This document shows, in pieces, positions 24,798 through 35,542 of a stretch of DNA of 64,000 bases. Numbering within the stretch: the first letter of the stretch is position 1; each line of letters opens with the position of its first letter. The position numbers were made by a program, and so were the translations under genes. Source of the stretch: Oceanithermus profundus DSM 14977 (GTDB taxonomy: Bacteria; Deinococcota; Deinococci; Deinococcales; Marinithermaceae); assembly GCF_000183745.1 (NCBI RefSeq), contig NC_014761.1, positions 1-64,000 on the forward strand, in the 5' to 3' direction. Under the pieces are notes generated by a model. It was not told the DNA's origin and ran no database searches. It saw only the letters and a list, made by a program, of their open reading frames with translations.

Positions 24798-25451
24798 ATG
24801 AAACTACCCTCGCTCTTCGGCGGCACCCGCGGCCTGGAGGCCCAGATCGACCTCTACTTCGACAAGGTGCAGGAGGCCGGTCTGGTCTTCGGCCGGGCGA
24901 TGGAGATCTACCTCGACCGCGGCGTCTCGGAAGAGTACGGCGACCTGGTGCGGCGCGTCACCGAGGTGGAGGAGGAGGCCGACGACCTGCGGCGCGAGAT
25001 CGAGACCCAGATGACCACCCACACCCTCATCCCCGAGCTGCGCGAGGACGTGCTCTCGCTCATCGAGCAGGTGGACGAGGTGACCAACCACTACGAGGCG
25101 GCGGTCTACAGCTTCTACATCCAGCGGCCCGTCATCGCCGCGGCCTACCGGGCCGACTTCGCCGAACTGGCGCGGATGGTGCAGCAGACCGCCGAGGAGA
25201 TGGTCACCGCCGCGCGCGCCTTCTTCCGCGACCTCAGCGCCGTGCGCGACCACGTCAAGAAGGTGCAGTTCTACGAGTCCGAGGCCGACAAGATCACCAC
25301 CCGCGTAGGGCGGCAGATCTTCGAGAGCGACCTCGACCTGGCCCACAAGATGCACCTGACCTCCTTCCTCGACCGCCTCGACAGCATCGCCGACACCGCC
25401 GAGGACATCGGCGACAAGCTCTCGATCCTGACGATCAAGCGGATGGTCTGA
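24798..25451 (+). CDS. DUF47/PhoU-related phosphate-transport regulator
   Basis: A 217-aa all-helical protein of the DUF47 (YkaA) family, related to PhoU. It starts KLPSLFGGTRGLEAQIDLYFDKVQEAG and has the heptad-rich helices VEEEADDLRREIETQM and FYESEADKITTRVGRQIFESDL. Members sit next to Pit-type phosphate permeases and are thought to modulate them; here the TGATG stop/start overlap with pit by one base fits that. ATG 24798 follows the TATAAT box above. Full length. Confidence 0.9.
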   Translation: MKLPSLFGGTRGLEAQIDLYFDKVQEAGLVFGRAMEIYLDRGVSEEYGDLVRRVTEVEEEADDLRREIETQMTTHTLIPELREDVLSLIEQVDEVTNHYEAAVYSFYIQRPVIAAAYRADFAELARMVQQTAEEMVTAARAFFRDLSAVRDHVKKVQFYESEADKITTRVGRQIFESDLDLAHKMHLTSFLDRLDSIADTAEDIGDKLSILTIKRMV

Positions 25452-26500
25452 TGAACCCGGGCCTCTTCGCCTACCTGTCGAGCGGCCTCTTCCTGGGCTG
25501 GTCGCTCGGGGCCAACGACGCGGCCAACATCTTCGGCACCGCCGTGGGCACCCGCATGGTGCGCTTCGCGACCGCCGCCCTCATCGCCAGCGTCTTCGTC
25601 ATCCTGGGGGCGGTGATCAGCGGTGCGGGGGCCTCGCACACCCTGGGCAAGCTGGGGGCGATCAACACCCTGCCGGGGGCGTTCATGGCGGCGCTGGCGG
25701 CCGCGCTGAGCGTCTACCTGATGACCCAGCGGGGGCTGCCCGTCTCCACCAGCCAGGCGATCGTCGGCGGCATCATCGGCTGGAACCTCTTCATGGGCCG
25801 GCCCACCGACCCCGCGGTCGTCTCCAAGTTCGCCTTCGCCTGGGTGGCCTCGCCGATCATGGCCGGGATCATGGCGGCGCTGCTCTTCATGCTGACGCGC
25901 GCGGTGCTGCGCCGCACCAAGATCCACCTGCTGCGGCTCGACCACTACACCCGCGCGGGGCTGATCCTGGTGGGCGCCTTCGGGGCCTACAGCCTGGGGG
26001 CCAACAACATCGCCAACGTCATGGGGGTCTTCGTGGGGGTCGCCCCCTTTCGCGATCTGCAGCTGGGCCCGATCGTGCTCACCTCGGCGCAGCAGCTCTT
26101 CCTGATCGGCGGCCTCGCCATCGCCGTGGGCATCTACACCTACTCCGAACGGGTGATGCTGACCGTGGGGCAGGACATCGTGCGCCTCACCCCGGTGGCG
26201 GCGCTGGTGGTGGTGCTGGCGCAGTCGCTGGTGCTCTTCCTCTTCGCCTCGCAGTCGCTGGCTTCCTGGCTGATCCAGCACGGGCTTCCGGCGCTGCCGC
26301 TGGTGCCGGTCTCGAGTTCCCAGGCGGTCGTGGGGGCGGTGATCGGGCTGGGGCTGATCACCCCCGGCGAGCGCGTCCGCTGGGACGTGGTGCGCAACAT
26401 CGCCATCGGCTGGCTCCTCACCCCTACGGTGGCGGCGATCATCTCGGTGGTGGGGATGTTCGTGCTGCAGAACGTCTTCAACCTGCCGGTGCGGCCTTGA
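25451..26500 (+). CDS. pit: Inorganic phosphate transporter, Pit family
   Basis: A 349-aa low-affinity phosphate permease with two repeats of the family signature, GANDAANIFGTAVGT near the N-terminus and GANNIANVMGVFVG in the second half, plus VSTSQAIVGGIIGWN and VSSSQAVVGAVIG. About ten membrane spans. Probably moves metal-phosphate with protons. Cotranscribed with DUF47. Its TGA stop (26498-26500) overlaps the left copy of the direct repeat that bounds the AT-rich HNH insert. Confidence 0.93.
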   Translation: MNPGLFAYLSSGLFLGWSLGANDAANIFGTAVGTRMVRFATAALIASVFVILGAVISGAGASHTLGKLGAINTLPGAFMAALAAALSVYLMTQRGLPVSTSQAIVGGIIGWNLFMGRPTDPAVVSKFAFAWVASPIMAGIMAALLFMLTRAVLRRTKIHLLRLDHYTRAGLILVGAFGAYSLGANNIANVMGVFVGVAPFRDLQLGPIVLTSAQQLFLIGGLAIAVGIYTYSERVMLTVGQDIVRLTPVAALVVVLAQSLVLFLFASQSLASWLIQHGLPALPLVPVSSSQAVVGAVIGLGLITPGERVRWDVVRNIAIGWLLTPTVAAIISVVGMFVLQNVFNLPVRP

Positions 26501-26509
26501 GGCCAAAGC
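26499..26509 (+). repeat. Left 11-bp direct repeat of the HNH insert
   Basis: GAGGCCAAAGC, identical to 27281-27291. It covers the last two bases of the pit stop codon. A perfect 11-mer repeated 782 bp apart at both edges of the AT-rich segment suggests a target-site duplication or recombination site. Confidence 0.75.
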
Positions 26510-26597
26510 AGCCAAAGATCCTTTAGCTCTTGGCGGTTGCACGTCTCTCTGTGAATCAGACGAGGTTTATTCTTGTCATGTGATTTAATCTTGAACT

Positions 26598-27224
26598 ATG
26601 ACATGGAAAGAGGCAGTTTTAAAAGCGCTACGTCGCCTTTCGAGAAGGCATCTCACAACAGTTTTAAAGCGCCAAACAATCATTGAAGAAGAACTGATGA
26701 CCATAGTAATCCACACTGGATCTCGTGGGAAAACACCAGAGCAGACTCTGAACAGGACCTTGCAAGATTTGCGCGATGATGGAAAAATAATTTTTTTAGA
26801 CAACAAAGGAACGTATCATTTGGTTTTCCTAGAAGATCTGCCCCCCGCCGACATCAGTGTTGATTATAAAGCTCCACCACGAGCTCCAGCCACTATTCAT
26901 CGTATTAAACGTGACACAGCAATAATCGCTCGTCTAAAAAGTCTGTATGAATACCAATGTCAAATTTGCGGCTTGCGGATACGATTACAAGATAGGTACT
27001 ACTGCGAAGCCCACCACCTGCGCCCGCTTGGGGAGCCACACAGTGGTCCCGACATAGAAGATAATATTATTATTGTTTGTCCAAATCACCACGTACAACT
27101 GGACTATGGCGCTTTACAAATACATGTAAGAGATTTACTGACATACAAGCACAGAATAAACCAAGAATACATTAGTTATCATAATAACGTTATTTGCCAT
27201 CCGGCTGCGCGTGAGGAAATATAA
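26598..27224 (+). CDS. wHTH-HNH endonuclease-like protein on an AT-rich insert
   Basis: A 208-aa protein in sequence visibly poorer in GC than all neighbours, so probably transferred. Residues 1-75 form a winged-helix region (TPEQTLNRTLQDLRDDGKI then a GTYHL strand) resembling the DNA-reading C-terminal wing domain of DpnI and Dam-replacing proteins. Residues 110-180 are an HNH nuclease: CQIC, EAHHLRPLGEPHSGPDIEDN, and VCPNHHVQLD supply the zinc Cys and the metal-binding His/Asn. This suggests a modification-dependent or stand-alone restriction nuclease; no methylase is present. ATG 26598 is 6 nt after TAATCT (26586-26591), a host-like leaderless promoter. Confidence 0.85.
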   Translation: MTWKEAVLKALRRLSRRHLTTVLKRQTIIEEELMTIVIHTGSRGKTPEQTLNRTLQDLRDDGKIIFLDNKGTYHLVFLEDLPPADISVDYKAPPRAPATIHRIKRDTAIIARLKSLYEYQCQICGLRIRLQDRYYCEAHHLRPLGEPHSGPDIEDNIIIVCPNHHVQLDYGALQIHVRDLLTYKHRINQEYISYHNNVICHPAAREEI

Positions 27225-27280
27225 CGCTCTCTTGCATCCCGAACGCAAAATAACCTGATCACCTTTCCAGGCTCTCGAGA

Positions 27281-27291
27281 GAGGCCAAAGC
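27281..27291 (+). repeat. Right 11-bp direct repeat of the HNH insert
   Basis: GAGGCCAAAGC, perfect copy of 26499-26509. It is 34 bp before the TATCCT -10 box of the asparaginase-like gene. Confidence 0.75.
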
Positions 27292-27336
27292 GGACGCGCC
27301 ATCACCTCTGCAAGTTAGTTCGGGTATCCTGACCCC

Positions 27337-27843
27337 GTGAACCCGACCCCCGAACCCGAGTTCGTGCAGGTCTTCACCACCGGCGGCACGATCGACAAGG
27401 TCTACTACGACGCCAAGGACGACTACACCGTGGGCGACCCGCAGATCGGCAAGCTGCTGGAGGAGGCGCGGGTCAACTTCCCCTACGCGATCGAGGCCCT
27501 CTTCAAGAAGGACAGCCTGCAGATGACCGACGCCGACCGCGCGCGCATTCGTGAGGCGGTGGCGGCCGCTCCGGCGCGGCGGGTGCTCATCACCCACGGC
27601 ACCGACACGATGGTGGAGACGGCCCGGGCGCTCGTGGGCGTGCCCGACAAGACGATCGTGCTCGTGGGGGCGATGCAGCCGGCGCGCTTTTTGGGCTCGG
27701 ACGCCGAGTTCAACATCGGCTACGCGGTCGCCGCGGTGCAGCTGCTGCCCCCGGGGGTCTACATCGCCATGAACGGCCAGGTCTTCGGGGCCGAGCGCGT
27801 GCGCAAGAACCGCGAACGGCTGCGGTTCGAGGCCGCCCCCTAG
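27337..27843 (+). CDS. Short asparaginase-like protein (N-terminal domain only)
   Basis: A 168-aa protein matching the N-terminal domain of type I/II L-asparaginases: FTTGGTIDKVYYD carries the nucleophile threonine loop and LITHGTDTMVETA the second catalytic Thr-Asp pair. The usual C-terminal domain is absent. Short asparaginase-domain proteins of this size occur in other bacteria, so it is probably a genuine compact form rather than a truncation. GTG 27337 follows TATCCT (27325-27330) by 6 nt. The stop overlaps the convergent P-type ATPase stop. Activity on asparagine is untested. Confidence 0.78.
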   Translation: MNPTPEPEFVQVFTTGGTIDKVYYDAKDDYTVGDPQIGKLLEEARVNFPYAIEALFKKDSLQMTDADRARIREAVAAAPARRVLITHGTDTMVETARALVGVPDKTIVLVGAMQPARFLGSDAEFNIGYAVAAVQLLPPGVYIAMNGQVFGAERVRKNRERLRFEAAP

Positions 27844-29900
27844 CGGGGCCGCCAGGCCAAGAGCCGGAGCGCGTTGGCGGTGACGAGCAGGGTCGCGCCG
27901 GTGTCGGCCATGACCGCGAGCCAGAGCCCGGTGTAGCCGAGCAGGGTGGTGACCAGGAAGACCGCTTTGAGGCCCAGGGCCACGGCGACGTTGGTGTAGA
28001 TGTTGCCGAGCGCGGCGCGGGCGAGGTTCAGGAAGTGGGCGAGCCGCAGTAGGTTGGGCTCGACCAGGGCCACGCCCGCGGCCTCGAGCGCCACCTGGGT
28101 GCCGCTGCCCATGGCCACGCCTAGGTCGGCGGCGGCCAGGGTGGGGGCGTCGTTCACGCCGTCGCCGACCATGCCCACCGGGTGGGGGAGCTCGGCGAGG
28201 GCCTCGAGCTTGTCCTCCGGGCGCAGCTCGGCGTGGTAACGGACCCCGCCCAGCTGCTCGGCGAGGCGGCGCACCGCCGGCTCGCGGTCGCCGGAGAGGA
28301 TGACGGTCTCGATGCCCAGGGCCCGCACCCGCTCGAGCGCCTCGGCCGCCTCGGGCCGCGGGGCGTCTTCGAAGAAGAGGACGGCCACCGTACGCCCGTC
28401 GAGCTTGACCACGCTCGCGGTCTCGCCGTTCTCGCTCACGCCCGCGGGCAGGCCGCCCGCGGCGGCGGGGCTGCCCACCCAGACCTCGCGGCCCGCCACC
28501 CGACCCTTCACCCAGGCGCCGGGCAGGGCGTCCAGGTCTTCGGCCTCGGGCACCGGGACTTCCAGTTCCTCGGCGCGCGCGAGGACGGCTTCGGCGATGG
28601 GGTGGGCGCTCGAGCGCTCGAGCGCCGCCACCAGCGGCAGGACCTCGCGCTCGTCCATGCCCCAGACCCGCACGAGCCGCGGCCGCCCTTCGGTGAGCGT
28701 GCCCGTCTTGTCGAAGGCGAGGGCGCGCAGGCGTCCGGCGGTCTCGAGCACGTCGCCCCCCTTGACGAGGACGCCCATCCGCCCCGAGCGCGCCAGCGCC
28801 GAGGTGACGGCCGCCGGCGCCGAGAGCACCAGGGCGCAGGGGCAGCCGATGAGCAGCAGGGCGAGCCCGCGGTAGATCCAGACCTCGAAGGGCTGGCCGA
28901 AGAGCAGCGGCGGTACCGTGGCCGCGAGCGCCGCCGCGACCACCACGAGCGGGGTGTAGTAACGGGCGAAGCGGTCGATGACGCGCGTCGTGGGGCTCTT
29001 CATCGCGTCGGCGCGCTCGACCAGCTTCTGGATCTGCGCCAGCGCGCTGTCCGCGACCGGCGCGGTCACCCGCGCCACCAGCTGCCCCTCGAGCAGCACG
29101 GTGCCCGCGTAGATGGGGTCGCCCGCACGCTTGGGCACGGGCGCGGACTCGCCGGTGAGCATCGACTCGTCCACCGCCCCCGCGCCCTCCAGGACCACGG
29201 CGTCGGCGGGGATGCGTTCCCCGGCGGGCACCTGGACCCGTTCGCCCACCGCCAGGAGCTCCACCGGCACCTCGCGCACGCGGCCGTCCGCTTCGAGCCG
29301 CCGCGCCTTGGTGGGGGCCAGCTTGGCCAGTTCGCGCAGGGTGCCGCGGGCGCGCGAGGCCGCCAGGCCCTCGAGCACCTCGCCGATCAGGAAGAGGAAG
29401 ACGACGACGAGCGCCTCGGGGGCGGCGTCGATGAGGATCGCGCCCACGACCGCGATCGAGACTAGGGCGTTGATGTCGAGGCCACCGCCGCTTTTCAGCA
29501 CCGCCCAGGCCTTGCGCGCCAGCGGGGCCACGCTGACCAGGGCGCCCGCGCTCCAGACCCAGCGGGCCGCGGCGGGCCAGAGCAGCTGACTGACGAGCGC
29601 CAGCACGATGAAGCCCGCGCTCACGCCCAGCATCTTCACCTTGGGGTTCTGCCACCAGGGCGCCTCGCCGGCCGGCTCGCGCTCGGGGCGCACCTTGTAG
29701 CCCAGCGGCTCCACCGCCCGGGCCACCGCCTCAGGACGGGCCTGGGCGTCCAGCTTGACGAAGAGCTTGCCGCTGCCGTAGGCCACGACCACTTCCTTGG
29801 CGCCCGGCAGCTTGCGGACCGCCTTTTCGATCTTGACCGCGCAGTCGGCGCAGTCCAAACCTTCGACGTCGAAGGTGAGTTCACGTACGGGGGCGTTCAT
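27840..29900 (-). CDS. Heavy-metal P1B-type ATPase (Cd/Zn/Pb exporter)
   Basis: A 686-aa metal-exporting ATPase. N-terminal HMA domain with VEGLDCADCAVKIEKAV (metal-binding CxxC), eight membrane helices, the actuator loop VDESMLTGESAPV, the CPC motif IGCPCALVLSAPAAV, phosphorylation site DKTGTLTEG, SSAHPIAEAVL and hinge GDGVNDAPTLAAADLGVAMG. CPC with this helix composition fits the P1B-2 (Zn/Cd/Pb) group. ATG 29900 lies 6 nt after TAAGAT (plus ATCTTA, 29907-29912). The ArsR-type sensor gene lies just upstream on the same strand with a likely operator between them. Confidence 0.93.
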   Translation of the reverse strand: MNAPVRELTFDVEGLDCADCAVKIEKAVRKLPGAKEVVVAYGSGKLFVKLDAQARPEAVARAVEPLGYKVRPEREPAGEAPWWQNPKVKMLGVSAGFIVLALVSQLLWPAAARWVWSAGALVSVAPLARKAWAVLKSGGGLDINALVSIAVVGAILIDAAPEALVVVFLFLIGEVLEGLAASRARGTLRELAKLAPTKARRLEADGRVREVPVELLAVGERVQVPAGERIPADAVVLEGAGAVDESMLTGESAPVPKRAGDPIYAGTVLLEGQLVARVTAPVADSALAQIQKLVERADAMKSPTTRVIDRFARYYTPLVVVAAALAATVPPLLFGQPFEVWIYRGLALLLIGCPCALVLSAPAAVTSALARSGRMGVLVKGGDVLETAGRLRALAFDKTGTLTEGRPRLVRVWGMDEREVLPLVAALERSSAHPIAEAVLARAEELEVPVPEAEDLDALPGAWVKGRVAGREVWVGSPAAAGGLPAGVSENGETASVVKLDGRTVAVLFFEDAPRPEAAEALERVRALGIETVILSGDREPAVRRLAEQLGGVRYHAELRPEDKLEALAELPHPVGMVGDGVNDAPTLAAADLGVAMGSGTQVALEAAGVALVEPNLLRLAHFLNLARAALGNIYTNVAVALGLKAVFLVTTLLGYTGLWLAVMADTGATLLVTANALRLLAWRPR

Positions 29901-31933: not shown

Positions 31934-33378
31934 GGCGCCTGGCCGCGCGGCTGGCGCTGGCGTTCTCGCTGCTGGTGCTGCCGCTGGGGGCCCTCTTCGT
32001 CTGGGGGGCGCTCGACGCCGCGCGCCGCTACCACCAGGAGATCGCCCAGAACCAGTACCGCGACCTGGCCGCCAACCTGCTCCACAAGAGTCCGGACCTG
32101 ATGGTCGGCGGCGAACGGGCCGGGGCGCTCGACGCGCTGGCCGCCGAGCTGGCCATGACCAACCCCGGCGTCGAGGTCTACCTGCTCGACGCGGAGGGCC
32201 GCATCGTCGGGGCCTCGCCCCCCATGGACGCCCTGGTGCGCAAGCGGGTGGACCTGCGCCCGCTCGAGCGCTTCGTGCGCGGCGAGGTGCGGGGGCCGCT
32301 GCTGGGCGACGACCCCAAGCGGCCGCGGGGCCGCCAGGTCTTCTCGGCCGCGCCGGTGCCCGGGGGCGGTTGGATCTACGTCCTCCTCTCCGACCTGGCC
32401 CTCGACTCGGTGGCCGAGGCCGTGGCCGGCAGCACCGTGCTGCGGCTGGCGCTGTGGGCGGGGCTGGGGCTGGTGCTGCTGGCGGCGCTCGTGGCCGCGG
32501 GCACCGCCTGGGGGCTGACGCGGCGGCTCACCGCCCTGGAGGCGGCGATGGAGCGCTTCGACCCCGCGGCCGAGGCCGGCCCGCCCGACCCGCCCGCGGG
32601 CGAGCGCGACGAGATCGACCGCCTGCACGCCCGCTTCGCCGAGCTGGCCGCCCGGGTGCGGGCGCTCCTCGCCTCCGAGCGCGAGGCCGACCGCCACCGG
32701 CGCGAGCTGGTGGCCGGGGTTTCGCACGACCTGCGCACCCCGCTGGCGGTGCTTTCGGGCTACCTGGAGACGCTGGAGCAGGCGGGGGAGCGCCTGAGCG
32801 CCGCCGAGCGCGCCCGCTACCTGGCCGCGGCGCGGGCCCAGGCGGCGCGGCTGGCGCGGATGACCGACGACCTCTTCACCCTGGCGCGGCTCGAGTCGGG
32901 GGCCTGGCCCTTCGCCCCCGAGCCGCTGGCGCTCGCCGAGCTGGTGCAGGACGTGGTGCTCGAGCTGCGCCCGCGTTTCGAGGCCCGTGGGGTGGCGCTC
33001 GAGCTGGCCCCGCCGCCGGGGCCGCTCGTGGTGCAGGGCGACGCGGGGCTCTTGGAGCGGGCGCTCGTCAACGTGCTGGTCAACGCGCTGGAGCACACGC
33101 CCGAGGGCGGCCGGGTAACGGTGCGCCTGGCCGAGGCGGAGGGCGAGGCGCGGGTCGCGGTGGCCGACACCGGCTCCGGCATCGCCCCCGAGGACCTGCC
33201 CCACCTCTTCGAACGGACCTTCCAGCGGCGCGACGGCGGCTCCGGACTGGGCCTCGCCATCGCCCAGCAGGCGTTGCGCCTGCACGGCGGCCGCGTCGAG
33301 GTGGAGAGCGCCCCGGGCGCGGGCAGCCGCTTTGAGATCAAGCTACCCTTACCAGGGCGGGATATATACCAGCCCTAG
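31930..33378 (+). CDS. Membrane sensor histidine kinase
   Basis: A 482-aa kinase. A short N-terminal membrane span (LALAFSLLVLPLGALFVWGAL) and a second (VLRLALWAGLGLVLLAALVAAGTAWGL) enclose a periplasmic sensor of about 140 residues. Then HAMP linker, H-box GVSHDLRTPLAVLSGYLETLE with phospho-His, N-box VNVLVNALEHTPEGG, G1 DTGSGIAPEDL and G2 GLGLAIAQQALRLHGG. GTG 31930 overlaps the regulator stop. Its last 30 bp overlap the convergent AT-rich gene, and the final residues (GRDIYQP) may come from the insertion rather than the ancestral kinase. Confidence 0.92.
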   Translation: MRRLAARLALAFSLLVLPLGALFVWGALDAARRYHQEIAQNQYRDLAANLLHKSPDLMVGGERAGALDALAAELAMTNPGVEVYLLDAEGRIVGASPPMDALVRKRVDLRPLERFVRGEVRGPLLGDDPKRPRGRQVFSAAPVPGGGWIYVLLSDLALDSVAEAVAGSTVLRLALWAGLGLVLLAALVAAGTAWGLTRRLTALEAAMERFDPAAEAGPPDPPAGERDEIDRLHARFAELAARVRALLASEREADRHRRELVAGVSHDLRTPLAVLSGYLETLEQAGERLSAAERARYLAAARAQAARLARMTDDLFTLARLESGAWPFAPEPLALAELVQDVVLELRPRFEARGVALELAPPPGPLVVQGDAGLLERALVNVLVNALEHTPEGGRVTVRLAEAEGEARVAVADTGSGIAPEDLPHLFERTFQRRDGGSGLGLAIAQQALRLHGGRVEVESAPGAGSRFEIKLPLPGRDIYQP

Positions 33379-34761
33379 CTGTAGGTGAATACTTTCGGGC
33401 ATCGTGTCTTCACCCACTAGATGAACCAAACCATCTTCTACCTTGTCGCCTAGGTTCCATGTTGGCTCAACAACAACACTGCTACCGTCTTCAAGGTCCA
33501 AGAATAACAGCTGGCGCTGCGGCAAGTATGCGCTATCTTCGGTTACGGCATGGATACGGAAGCCAACAAGCTGACGGCCTACAAGTTTTTGTATGACTCC
33601 TTGATGTATATAAAGCTTTGTTAGATCCTCGCTGCACTCCAATTTGAGTTGCTTAATAGCGTCATGGTCAATAATCGAGAAACTCACACTCATGTCGGAT
33701 GCGGCTGGCGTTTTCTTGCTAATGAAGGTTATTCCGTCCGCATGAAAAGTGATTGCAATTTGCGAGCCGCTGTTGAATCGAATCCGCAGGGCGTCTCTTG
33801 AGACTTCTCCACTTTTCTTGATTTCGCAGACCTCAACACCACTGATTTCCTGATGGAGGTATTTCGATAAATTCGTATTCTCTGGTTTATCAACGGGGGT
33901 GTCAGAGTATGTAGGCAAACTGGCAAGCGCTAAGGCTTTTTCTTTTCCAGTGTAAAAATTATATTCTAATATATAAACGAGATGCTCCACACTCTTGGCA
34001 AGCCGCTCTAGATCGTAGACAAACGTTTCATAAGCCTCGCATCTGACCGCGCTTTCACGCACCTTATGAACGCTCTTTCCTCGATACTTACTAATGTGTC
34101 CAAGGATTTCTTGTAAATATGTAGCCTCTGGAAACGCTGCTTTCAGAGCCTTATAACCTTTCTTGCTATTAGATGATTTTCTTTTTAGAATGCTGCCTAA
34201 CTTATTAATGCATTCCACATCTAATGCGTCGTTAATATATCGATAAAGCTCTCTGTGTGCATCCTCATAGGCGTGCGTGTGATTCACAAATGGAAACCGA
34301 AGGGATACTAACTCGGTATGTCGAATAGAGAAAATTCCGCAACCCGCATGTACTTGAGACAGCGCATTGGCCCACTCAACCTGTTTAATTAGCTGCTGCA
34401 AAGGAGGCGTTTCTTTTGCCCAGTCTCCTTTCAAGTAGACAGAAACCCACTCTTCAAATTTAGGGTCTGGGCTGTCTTGAAATTCAGACGGGTCTAGTTC
34501 GAAGCAGTCCCACTTCGATTGTTCTGACGCAGCCGTATTCTTCATAAGATCAGGCTTATATGCCGCAATGGCTAGTTCTCCGTCAGGGAGCTCTCGAAAA
34601 GCGAAGCGTAAGTTAATGAGGTTTTCTGGAGGTGCGCTCTCAGTCGACTTAATATGGCCACCGTGCAACCCAAACTCAATGCTATATTTATCCGGTCGAC
34701 CAAGATAAACATATAAAATTTCGGAGCGAAAGAACCTCAAAAAGCCTAGAGGATTCATCAT
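33349..34761 (-). CDS. Unknown AT-rich gene with a possible HEPN-type motif
   Basis: A 470-aa protein in sequence clearly lower in GC than its neighbours. No domain is certain. Residues 1-130 look beta-rich. Residues 160-270 are helical, with HISKYRGKSVHKVRESAVRCEAYETF containing R227-GKSV-H232, an Rx4H arrangement like the catalytic pair of HEPN ribonucleases. Residues 300-470 are again beta-rich. HEPN proteins are frequent in defence and toxin systems, but the match is a single motif. Start ATG 34761 is 7 nt after TAGAAT (plus ATTCTA, 34769-34774); ATG 34758 is an alternative. The 3' end overlaps the histidine-kinase gene by 30 bp. Confidence 0.7.
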   Translation of the reverse strand: MMNPLGFLRFFRSEILYVYLGRPDKYSIEFGLHGGHIKSTESAPPENLINLRFAFRELPDGELAIAAYKPDLMKNTAASEQSKWDCFELDPSEFQDSPDPKFEEWVSVYLKGDWAKETPPLQQLIKQVEWANALSQVHAGCGIFSIRHTELVSLRFPFVNHTHAYEDAHRELYRYINDALDVECINKLGSILKRKSSNSKKGYKALKAAFPEATYLQEILGHISKYRGKSVHKVRESAVRCEAYETFVYDLERLAKSVEHLVYILEYNFYTGKEKALALASLPTYSDTPVDKPENTNLSKYLHQEISGVEVCEIKKSGEVSRDALRIRFNSGSQIAITFHADGITFISKKTPAASDMSVSFSIIDHDAIKQLKLECSEDLTKLYIHQGVIQKLVGRQLVGFRIHAVTEDSAYLPQRQLLFLDLEDGSSVVVEPTWNLGDKVEDGLVHLVGEDTMPESIHLQLGLVYIPPW

Positions 34762-34819: not shown

Positions 34820-35542
34820 CTACTTCACCGGCGCGACCGTCACCTTGATCACCGGCCCCGTGAGCTCGACGCCCATCACGTCGTGGACCACGCCGCCCTC
34901 GTCGGCCCCGTAGTTCTTGCCCATCTGCCGCGGGGCCTGGTTGGGCCCCTCGCCGGCGGGCTCGTTCACCTCGGTACCGGCGTCCCAGAGCTTGAAGTAC
35001 ATCGTCACCTCGCCCTCGAGCGGGTGGTTCATGGGGAAGAGTTCGATGCCCTCGGGCCCCGGCGCGTAGAACCAGTCGTTCGACTGCACGAACATCGTCG
35101 CCAGCGAGAGCCGCGCCCCCGGGGCGGCGGTGATGCGGAAGGTGTAGGCCTCGCCCGGGAAGATGGGGGCGGGCGCGTCCTTGCCCGCGGGCACGGCGAA
35201 GACGCCCGCCGAAGCCACCCCCGGCTTCATCGCCAGCTCCGCGGCCAGCGCCGCGGGGTCGCCGTCCTCGGCGAGCCGTTCGAGCCCCAGCCCCGCCGCC
35301 TCGCCCGGCGTAAAGAGGGGGTTTGCGCCCTCGTGCACCGCCCACACGCCCGGGGCCAGGGGCACGGCCACGCCGCCCTTCATCGTCATCAACGTCGTCG
35401 GGGTGCTCACGTTCTCGACGCGCACCTCGAAGGCGTAGCTGCCCATCATCGCGTCCGAACCCATCTTGTCCTTGTCCCCCGACATCTGCGCCGCCGCGGC
35501 CAGGGTCAGCGCCGCCAGTCCCATCGTCCATGCTCGTTTCAT
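34820..35542 (-). CDS. Spondin-domain secreted protein
   Basis: A 240-aa exported protein (MKRAWTMGLAALTLAAAAQMSG is signal-like) followed by a spondin-N-type domain: YAFEVRVENVSTPTTL, NPLFTPGEAAGLGLERLAEDGDPAALAAEL, LATMFVQSNDWFYAPG and KLWDAGTEVNEPAGEGPNQAP are in the order seen in bacterial spondin-domain proteins. These are usually extracellular; the ligand is unknown. GGAG precedes ATG 35542 by about 6 nt. It may be monocistronic. Confidence 0.85.
   Translation of the reverse strand: MKRAWTMGLAALTLAAAAQMSGDKDKMGSDAMMGSYAFEVRVENVSTPTTLMTMKGGVAVPLAPGVWAVHEGANPLFTPGEAAGLGLERLAEDGDPAALAAELAMKPGVASAGVFAVPAGKDAPAPIFPGEAYTFRITAAPGARLSLATMFVQSNDWFYAPGPEGIELFPMNHPLEGEVTMYFKLWDAGTEVNEPAGEGPNQAPRQMGKNYGADEGGVVHDVMGVELTGPVIKVTVAPVK

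What the first reader, a model, noticed from the sequence alone, without database searches (positions are those of the whole stretch)
26499..27291. One-gene AT-rich cassette (wHTH-HNH nuclease) bounded by a perfect 11-bp direct repeat
Seen: GAGGCCAAAGC occurs at 26499-26509 and again at 27281-27291, exactly at the two ends of an abrupt AT-rich segment that holds one gene. A chance 11-mer repeat at those points is very unlikely. No transposase, integrase or terminal inverted repeats are present. Known: HNH proteins with a DpnI-like winged helix can be modification-dependent restriction enzymes. Inference: a minimal mobile defence cassette, inserted behind pit without damage, moved by machinery in trans. 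Its promoter (TAATCT, 6 nt from the ATG) already has the local leaderless form.
Basis: partly seen in the sequence, partly recalled or inferred. Interest (0 to 1): 0.75.

Follow-up and report, generated by a model that had tools for sequence, protein, structure and literature searches.

The report
Restriction gene swapped for Fic gene
A foreign, AT-rich gene for a probable modified-DNA-cutting enzyme sits in the heat-loving bacterium Oceanithermus profundus where its relatives keep an unrelated Fic gene, so it is an ordinary gene replacement with a restriction-type gene rather than a new mobile cassette marked by an 11-base repeat.

Summary
The 11-mer GAGGCCAAAGC is at both stated places, and between them lies one AT-rich gene (GC 42%, GC3 37%; neighbours' GC3 96-97%). 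The window is the chromosome of Oceanithermus profundus 506T (exact genome and chromosome lengths). The "minimal mobile cassette with target-site duplication" reading fails. In the same genus the pit-asparaginase spacer is not a single-copy empty site: two relatives carry a convergent fic gene there, a third has 114 bp, a fourth about 265 bp; none has GAGGCCAAAGC. Fic also follows pit in two genomes of a sister genus, so fic is probably ancestral, and it is gone from this genome. Homology with three relatives breaks at the same two positions (26496 and 27320). The right 11-mer lies 28 bp inside that boundary, and an 11-mer match near two such points occurs in about 1-2% of random pairs. The protein (208 aa) joins an N-terminal DpnI-type winged helix to a C-terminal TagI-type HNH nuclease with all catalytic residues intact: a new, short member of the described wH-HNH type IV (modification-dependent) enzymes. 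Two of three G6mATC-reading residues are replaced, so its target mark is open. Most likely history: foreign DNA replaced fic, perhaps by recombination through the flanks.

The parts
26598..27224 (+). wH-HNH gene, 208 aa: DpnI-type winged helix (aa 1-80) + TagI-type HNH nuclease (aa 99-195)
   Evidence: ORF; Pfam HNH_2 2.2e-6 and HNH 2.2e-5 above cut-off; TagI 6ghs E 4.1e-19 by sequence and 5.4e-8 by Foldseek; GC 0.424, GC3 0.368
26598..26837 (+). winged-helix (modification reader) domain, aa 1-80
   Evidence: 44 of 79 residues shared with the N-terminus of an HNH protein of G063 (L013); aligns with DpnI-type wH domains of Deinococcota, LQ-x-LRD-x-G-x-x-x-F...G-x-Y; hhalign pairwise E 8.4e-5, probability 60%
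26892..27182 (+). HNH nuclease domain, aa 99-195; C121-C124/C161-H164 zinc site, H140/D152/N156/H165/D169 active site
   Evidence: Residues invariant in 8 and 12 relatives; correspond to TagI Cys210/Cys213/His229/Asp241/Asn245/Cys250/Asp253/His254/Asp258 (alignment; PMC6212794)
26499..26509 (+). left copy of GAGGCCAAAGC; first two bases are part of the pit stop codon TGA
27281..27291 (+). right copy of GAGGCCAAAGC, 28 bp inside the right homology boundary
26497..27319 (.). replaced interval: homology to G001, G002 and G004 stops at 26496 and resumes at 27320 in all three; it supplies pit's stop codon
   Evidence: spacer contents
26586..26591 (+). TAATCT, putative -10 of a leaderless promoter, 6 nt before the ATG
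   Evidence: sequence; TANNNT 4-8 nt upstream in 13 of 116 long mechanical ORFs, 9 of these at 6 nt or near it
25451..26500 (+). pit (phosphate transporter), conserved left flank
27337..27843 (+). short asparaginase-domain gene (168 aa), conserved right flank; its TATCCT-6nt-GTG start is conserved in G001, G002, G004 and G005
   Evidence: PF00710 2.5e-26

Best explanation
A laterally acquired gene for a small modification-dependent (type IV) restriction endonuclease of wH-HNH architecture replaced the resident fic gene in the pit-asparaginase spacer of O. profundus. Shown: foreign composition; fic at this place in two same-genus relatives and behind pit in two sister-genus genomes; no fic in this genome; homology breaks at one common pair of points; catalytic residues intact. 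Inferred: the winged helix binds a modified base in duplex DNA and brings in a dimer of HNH nuclease that cuts nearby, so modified phage or plasmid DNA is destroyed while the unmodified host is spared. Inferred, less sure: the swap came by illegitimate joining or by homologous recombination through the conserved flanks, not by a transposase acting in trans. The two 11-mers are probably chance or microhomology, not a target-site duplication.
For: Junction: G002 (pit 99.7% identical in protein) and G001 carry a 381-aa Fic protein (Fic_N 2e-25, Fic 1.6e-20) convergent to pit. Fic also follows pit in sister-genus G008 and G011 and is absent from G000. G004 has a 114-bp spacer that keeps the TTATTTTA/TAAAATAA sequence found upstream of fic. 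No relative has GAGGCCAAAGC. Common breakpoints 26496/27320. Recombination at the spot: G004's identity to the window jumps from about 75-91% (mostly about 82%) left of the junction to 88-99% over 27.3-29.7 kb, then falls, with no such rise in G001 or G002. Enzyme: HNH above Pfam cut-offs; TagI, EcoKMcrA and ScoMcrA are the top hits by sequence and by structure (HNH part pLDDT mostly 82-97); the same HNH module is joined to SRA-like, EVE-like and other N-termini elsewhere. wH-HNH enzymes are a described class (PMC11037411), and the wH and HNH of HHPV4I suffice without its SRA domain (PMC10101028).
Against: The winged helix is recognised only weakly by curated models (HARE-HTH 0.006 for the N-terminus; DpnI_C 0.03 for the L013 relative; both below cut-off). 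It lacks two of the three residues that read G6mATC in DpnI (K229 and R231 aligned to T50 and N52; Q235 kept as Q56, PMC10101028). Its model is poor (pLDDT about 50-76). No activity data. A plasmid-borne D12-class adenine methyltransferase of unknown target is present. No donor genome with the same gene in the same place was found, so the recombination route is inference. The order of events (fic lost first, or fic replaced) is not resolved.
Confidence: 0.72

Rival explanations
1. Minimal mobile cassette: the gene moves as a unit by machinery in trans and made the 11-bp repeat as a target-site duplication.
For: Perfect 11-bp direct repeat flanking the gene; single foreign gene with no transposase of its own.
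Against: No relative has a single-copy site; the closest have fic there. The right copy lies 28 bp inside the homology boundary. An 11-bp match near two such points occurs in about 1-2% of random pairs. No second copy of the unit was found in this genome or its relatives. The other AT-rich single-gene island in the window has no such repeat.
Confidence: 0.08
2. Homologous allelic exchange: a donor Oceanithermus already carried the gene between pit and the asparaginase gene, and DNA uptake plus recombination in the conserved flanks swapped it for fic (one of the two routes left open by the best explanation).
For: Breakpoints fall at the pit stop codon and at the asparaginase promoter in three comparisons; mosaic identity of G004 starting at this junction; Thermaceae relatives are known for natural transformation (own knowledge).
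Against: No donor with the gene in this place was found among 61 genomes searched; the first arrival of the gene still needs an illegitimate event. G000-G002 identity shows no sharp step at the junction itself.
Confidence: 0.45
3. Fic was first deleted (as in G004) and the foreign gene then entered the remaining spacer by illegitimate recombination, the 11-mer serving as microhomology or arising by chance (the other route left open by the best explanation).
For: G004 and G005 lack fic and have short spacers; a 9-mer AAAATAACC in the spacer right of the gene is shared with the fic-upstream sequence kept in G004.
Against: The shared 9-mer is at chance level; nothing else of the fic locus is recognisable in the window.
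Confidence: 0.35
4. The protein is not restriction but a DNA-binding regulator or a homing-type HNH nuclease.
For: HNH is shared by homing enzymes; the winged helix is a general DNA-binding fold.
Against: Its HNH domain is nearest TagI and its relatives are joined to SRA- and EVE-type modification readers; no intron or intein context; the gene does not lie inside a homing target.
Confidence: 0.12

Closest known systems
wH-HNH type IV endonucleases (SruGXI, HpaD253I and others; PMC11037411) and PUA/SRA-wH-HNH HHPV4I (HhiV4I)
   Same: Winged-helix reader followed by HNH nuclease; stand-alone gene without a neighbouring methyltransferase.
   Different: 208 aa against 224-283 aa; bacterial (Thermales) rather than haloarchaeal; two of the three G6mATC-reading residues replaced.
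TagI (SRA-HNH), PDB 6ghs
   Same: HNH domain with the same zinc and active-site residues, 31% identity over the structural match.
   Different: Reader is a winged helix instead of SRA; zinc ligand CxxH instead of CxxD.
DpnI (PD-(D/E)XK-wH)
   Same: Winged helix of the same sequence type (LQ-x-LRD...G-x-Y).
   Different: Different nuclease fold, reversed domain order, K229 and R231 not kept.
HNH protein of G063 (L013:1324-2043, same order)
   Same: Winged helix 56% identical to that of the window protein.
   Different: Carries another, HNH_2-type nuclease module; other locus.

Membership tests
wH-HNH type IV restriction endonuclease | N-terminal DpnI-type winged helix | tested here: met
   Motif alignment with DpnI-type domains, hhalign E 8.4e-5, probability 60%; curated Pfam models only below cut-off, so met with moderate confidence
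wH-HNH type IV restriction endonuclease | C-terminal HNH nuclease with intact H-N-H and zinc ligands | tested here: met
   residues as in PMC6212794
wH-HNH type IV restriction endonuclease | Stand-alone gene, no cognate methyltransferase next to it | tested here: met
   Flanking genes are pit and asparaginase; adenine methyltransferase-family matches lie at C2:2273045 and on the plasmid contig C1; cytosine methyltransferases not searched
wH-HNH type IV restriction endonuclease | G6mATC-reading residues (DpnI K229, R231, Q235) | tested here: not met
   T50, N52, Q56 at these places. Not defining for the class: only about 10% of wH fusions have the motif (PMC11037411)
wH-HNH type IV restriction endonuclease | Cuts modified DNA in preference to unmodified DNA | not testable with these tools
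   Needs purified enzyme
Transposed cassette with target-site duplication | Empty site with one copy of the repeat in relatives lacking the insert | tested here: not met
   G001, G002, G004, G005 have no GAGGCCAAAGC at the junction; G001 and G002 have fic. G003's contig ends there
Transposed cassette with target-site duplication | Repeat abuts both ends of the inserted segment | tested here: not met
   Left copy 2 bp inside, right copy 28 bp inside the homology boundaries 26496/27320
Transposed cassette with target-site duplication | Further copies of the element | tested here: not met
   Protein and DNA searches of the own genome and 60 relatives find none

The most novel reading that the evidence does not exclude
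A very short winged-helix/HNH enzyme whose reader domain has lost the G6mATC contacts and reads another DNA mark, with reader and nuclease modules swapped freely among Thermales.
Probability: 0.3. Interest if true: 0.45.

Novelty: new member of a known kind. Interest (0 to 1): 0.27.

Why it matters
It adds a compact, probably heat-stable member to the wH-HNH type IV enzymes, with altered residues where DpnI reads G6mATC. It also gives a clear case of one accessory gene (fic) replaced by a restriction-type gene at one fixed spacer. It shows that a short perfect repeat around a foreign gene should not be taken for a target-site duplication without an empty site.

Tried and rejected
Relatives of the whole protein in viral contigs and annotated phages: none. 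Relatives of the winged helix in viral contigs, phages and plasmids: none. Sequence search of the winged helix against solved structures: nothing of value. First structure model without enough relatives: unusable. The other three genomic copies of the 11-mer: one at the start of a gene with a signal-peptide-like sequence, one in an AT-rich 358-aa ORF, one in another coding-looking stretch; none was seen to flank a similar single-gene cassette. Fic remnants inside the window segment: only chance-level 8- to 12-mers. A literature search for single-gene swaps by transformation gave nothing to the point.

Full report
Where it is. The genome that holds the window has 2,439,291 bases and the window's contig 2,303,940; these are exactly the genome and chromosome lengths published for Oceanithermus profundus 506T (PMC3111992).

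The observation. GAGGCCAAAGC is at 26499-26509 and 27281-27291. Between them lies one gene, 26598-27224, 208 aa, with GC 0.424 and GC3 0.368, against GC3 0.97 in pit and 0.96 in the asparaginase gene. It is foreign to this genome's composition. The weight put on the repeat is too high: random pairs of points at this distance in the same genome share an exact match of at least 11 bp in 0.66% (within 30 bp), 2.4% (within 50 bp) or 10.6% (within 100 bp) of cases.

The junction in relatives. Searching pit in same-genus genomes gave the junction in four that lack the gene. G002 (pit 99.7% identical in protein, 98% in DNA) has 1,217 bp and G001 1,241 bp there, in each case a 381-aa Fic protein convergent with pit and overlapping its stop. 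G004 has 114 bp with the TTATTTTA/TAAAATAA elements that in G001 and G002 lie upstream of fic. G005 has about 265 bp of other sequence. None contains GAGGCCAAAGC. In two genomes of a sister genus a Fic protein 60-62% identical also follows pit. Fic is therefore probably ancestral here, and it has no match in O. profundus. Homology of the window with G001, G002 and G004 ends at 26496 and resumes at 27320 in all three. The replaced interval is 26497-27319; it supplies pit's stop codon (TGA instead of TAA/TAG). The right 11-mer lies 28 bp inside it.

How the swap may have come. There is no donor in hand. One sign of recombination at this very place is the identity of G004 to the window: mostly 75-91% left of the junction, 88-99% from 27,320 to about 29,700, then a fall to 66-87%, while G001 and G002 show no such rise. 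This fits exchange between Oceanithermus lineages with an end point in this spacer. It does not prove how the wH-HNH gene came.

The protein. The C-terminal part (aa 99-195) is an HNH nuclease above Pfam cut-offs. The nearest solved structure is TagI, by sequence (E 4e-19) and by fold of the predicted model (E 5e-8, followed by EcoKMcrA and ScoMcrA). All residues required in TagI are present, with the CxxH form of the zinc site. Elsewhere this HNH module is joined to SRA-like, EVE-like and other N-termini. The N-terminal 80 residues are a winged helix. It is 56% identical to that of an HNH protein in another Thermales genome, G063, which has a different nuclease module. It aligns with DpnI-type winged helices of Deinococcota through LQ-x-LRD-x-G...F...G-x-Y (hhalign E 8.4e-5, probability 60%). 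Curated models see it only below cut-off. The DpnI residues K229, R231 and Q235 correspond to T50, N52 and Q56, so recognition of G6mATC is not predicted; the mark is open.

What is known. Winged-helix/HNH endonucleases are described as 6mA-dependent type IV enzymes, 224-283 aa, mostly haloarchaeal (PMC11037411), and in HHPV4I the winged helix and HNH suffice without the SRA domain (PMC10101028). The window protein works like these by anatomy and is filed as a new, short member with the modification dependence untested.

Limits. Activity was not tested; the winged-helix part of the model is of low confidence; G003's contig ends at the junction; the order of fic loss and gene gain is unresolved. 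The wording '8 or 9 of 13 at spacing 6' for the leaderless box rests on mechanical ORFs with first start codons, not on curated genes.

Noticed in passing
window 33349-34761 (-): A second AT-rich single-gene island (GC about 0.46, 470-aa ORF, no Pfam family above cut-off, no PADLOC match) 6 kb away. Homology to G001 and G002 stops at 33332 and resumes at 34821; G001 has about 208 bp there, G002 1.3 kb of GC-rich DNA with a 349-aa frame. No flanking repeat longer than 7 bp.
   Followed up: partly
window 27320-29700: G004 is far more like the window here (88-99%) than on either side: a probable recombination tract between Oceanithermus lineages.
   Followed up: partly
L003:2547-3692, L004:356-1501, L008, L010: Fic gene convergent to pit with TTATTTTA/TAAAATAA elements upstream in G001 and G002 (possible operator; Fic has a C-terminal HTH-like part). 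The G008 match contains one stop codon.
   Followed up: partly
window 27337-27843: The 'asparaginase' is only 168 aa (N-terminal asparaginase domain), and relatives match over the same short length.
   Followed up: no
L086, L087, L088: DpnI-type winged helices with the KIRQQLQ motif at the C-terminus of proteins that look like PLD-type nucleases in a related genus, and a full DpnI-like protein in L085.
   Followed up: no
G000:C1:20460-21002 (L082): D12-class adenine methyltransferase gene on the plasmid contig, target unknown; relevant to self-conflict with a 6mA reader.
   Followed up: no
L034:9479-10555 (G000:C2 about 1949479-1950555): AT-rich island with a 358-aa ORF of unknown function that contains one of the five genomic GAGGCCAAAGC copies, inside the coding region.
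   Followed up: no
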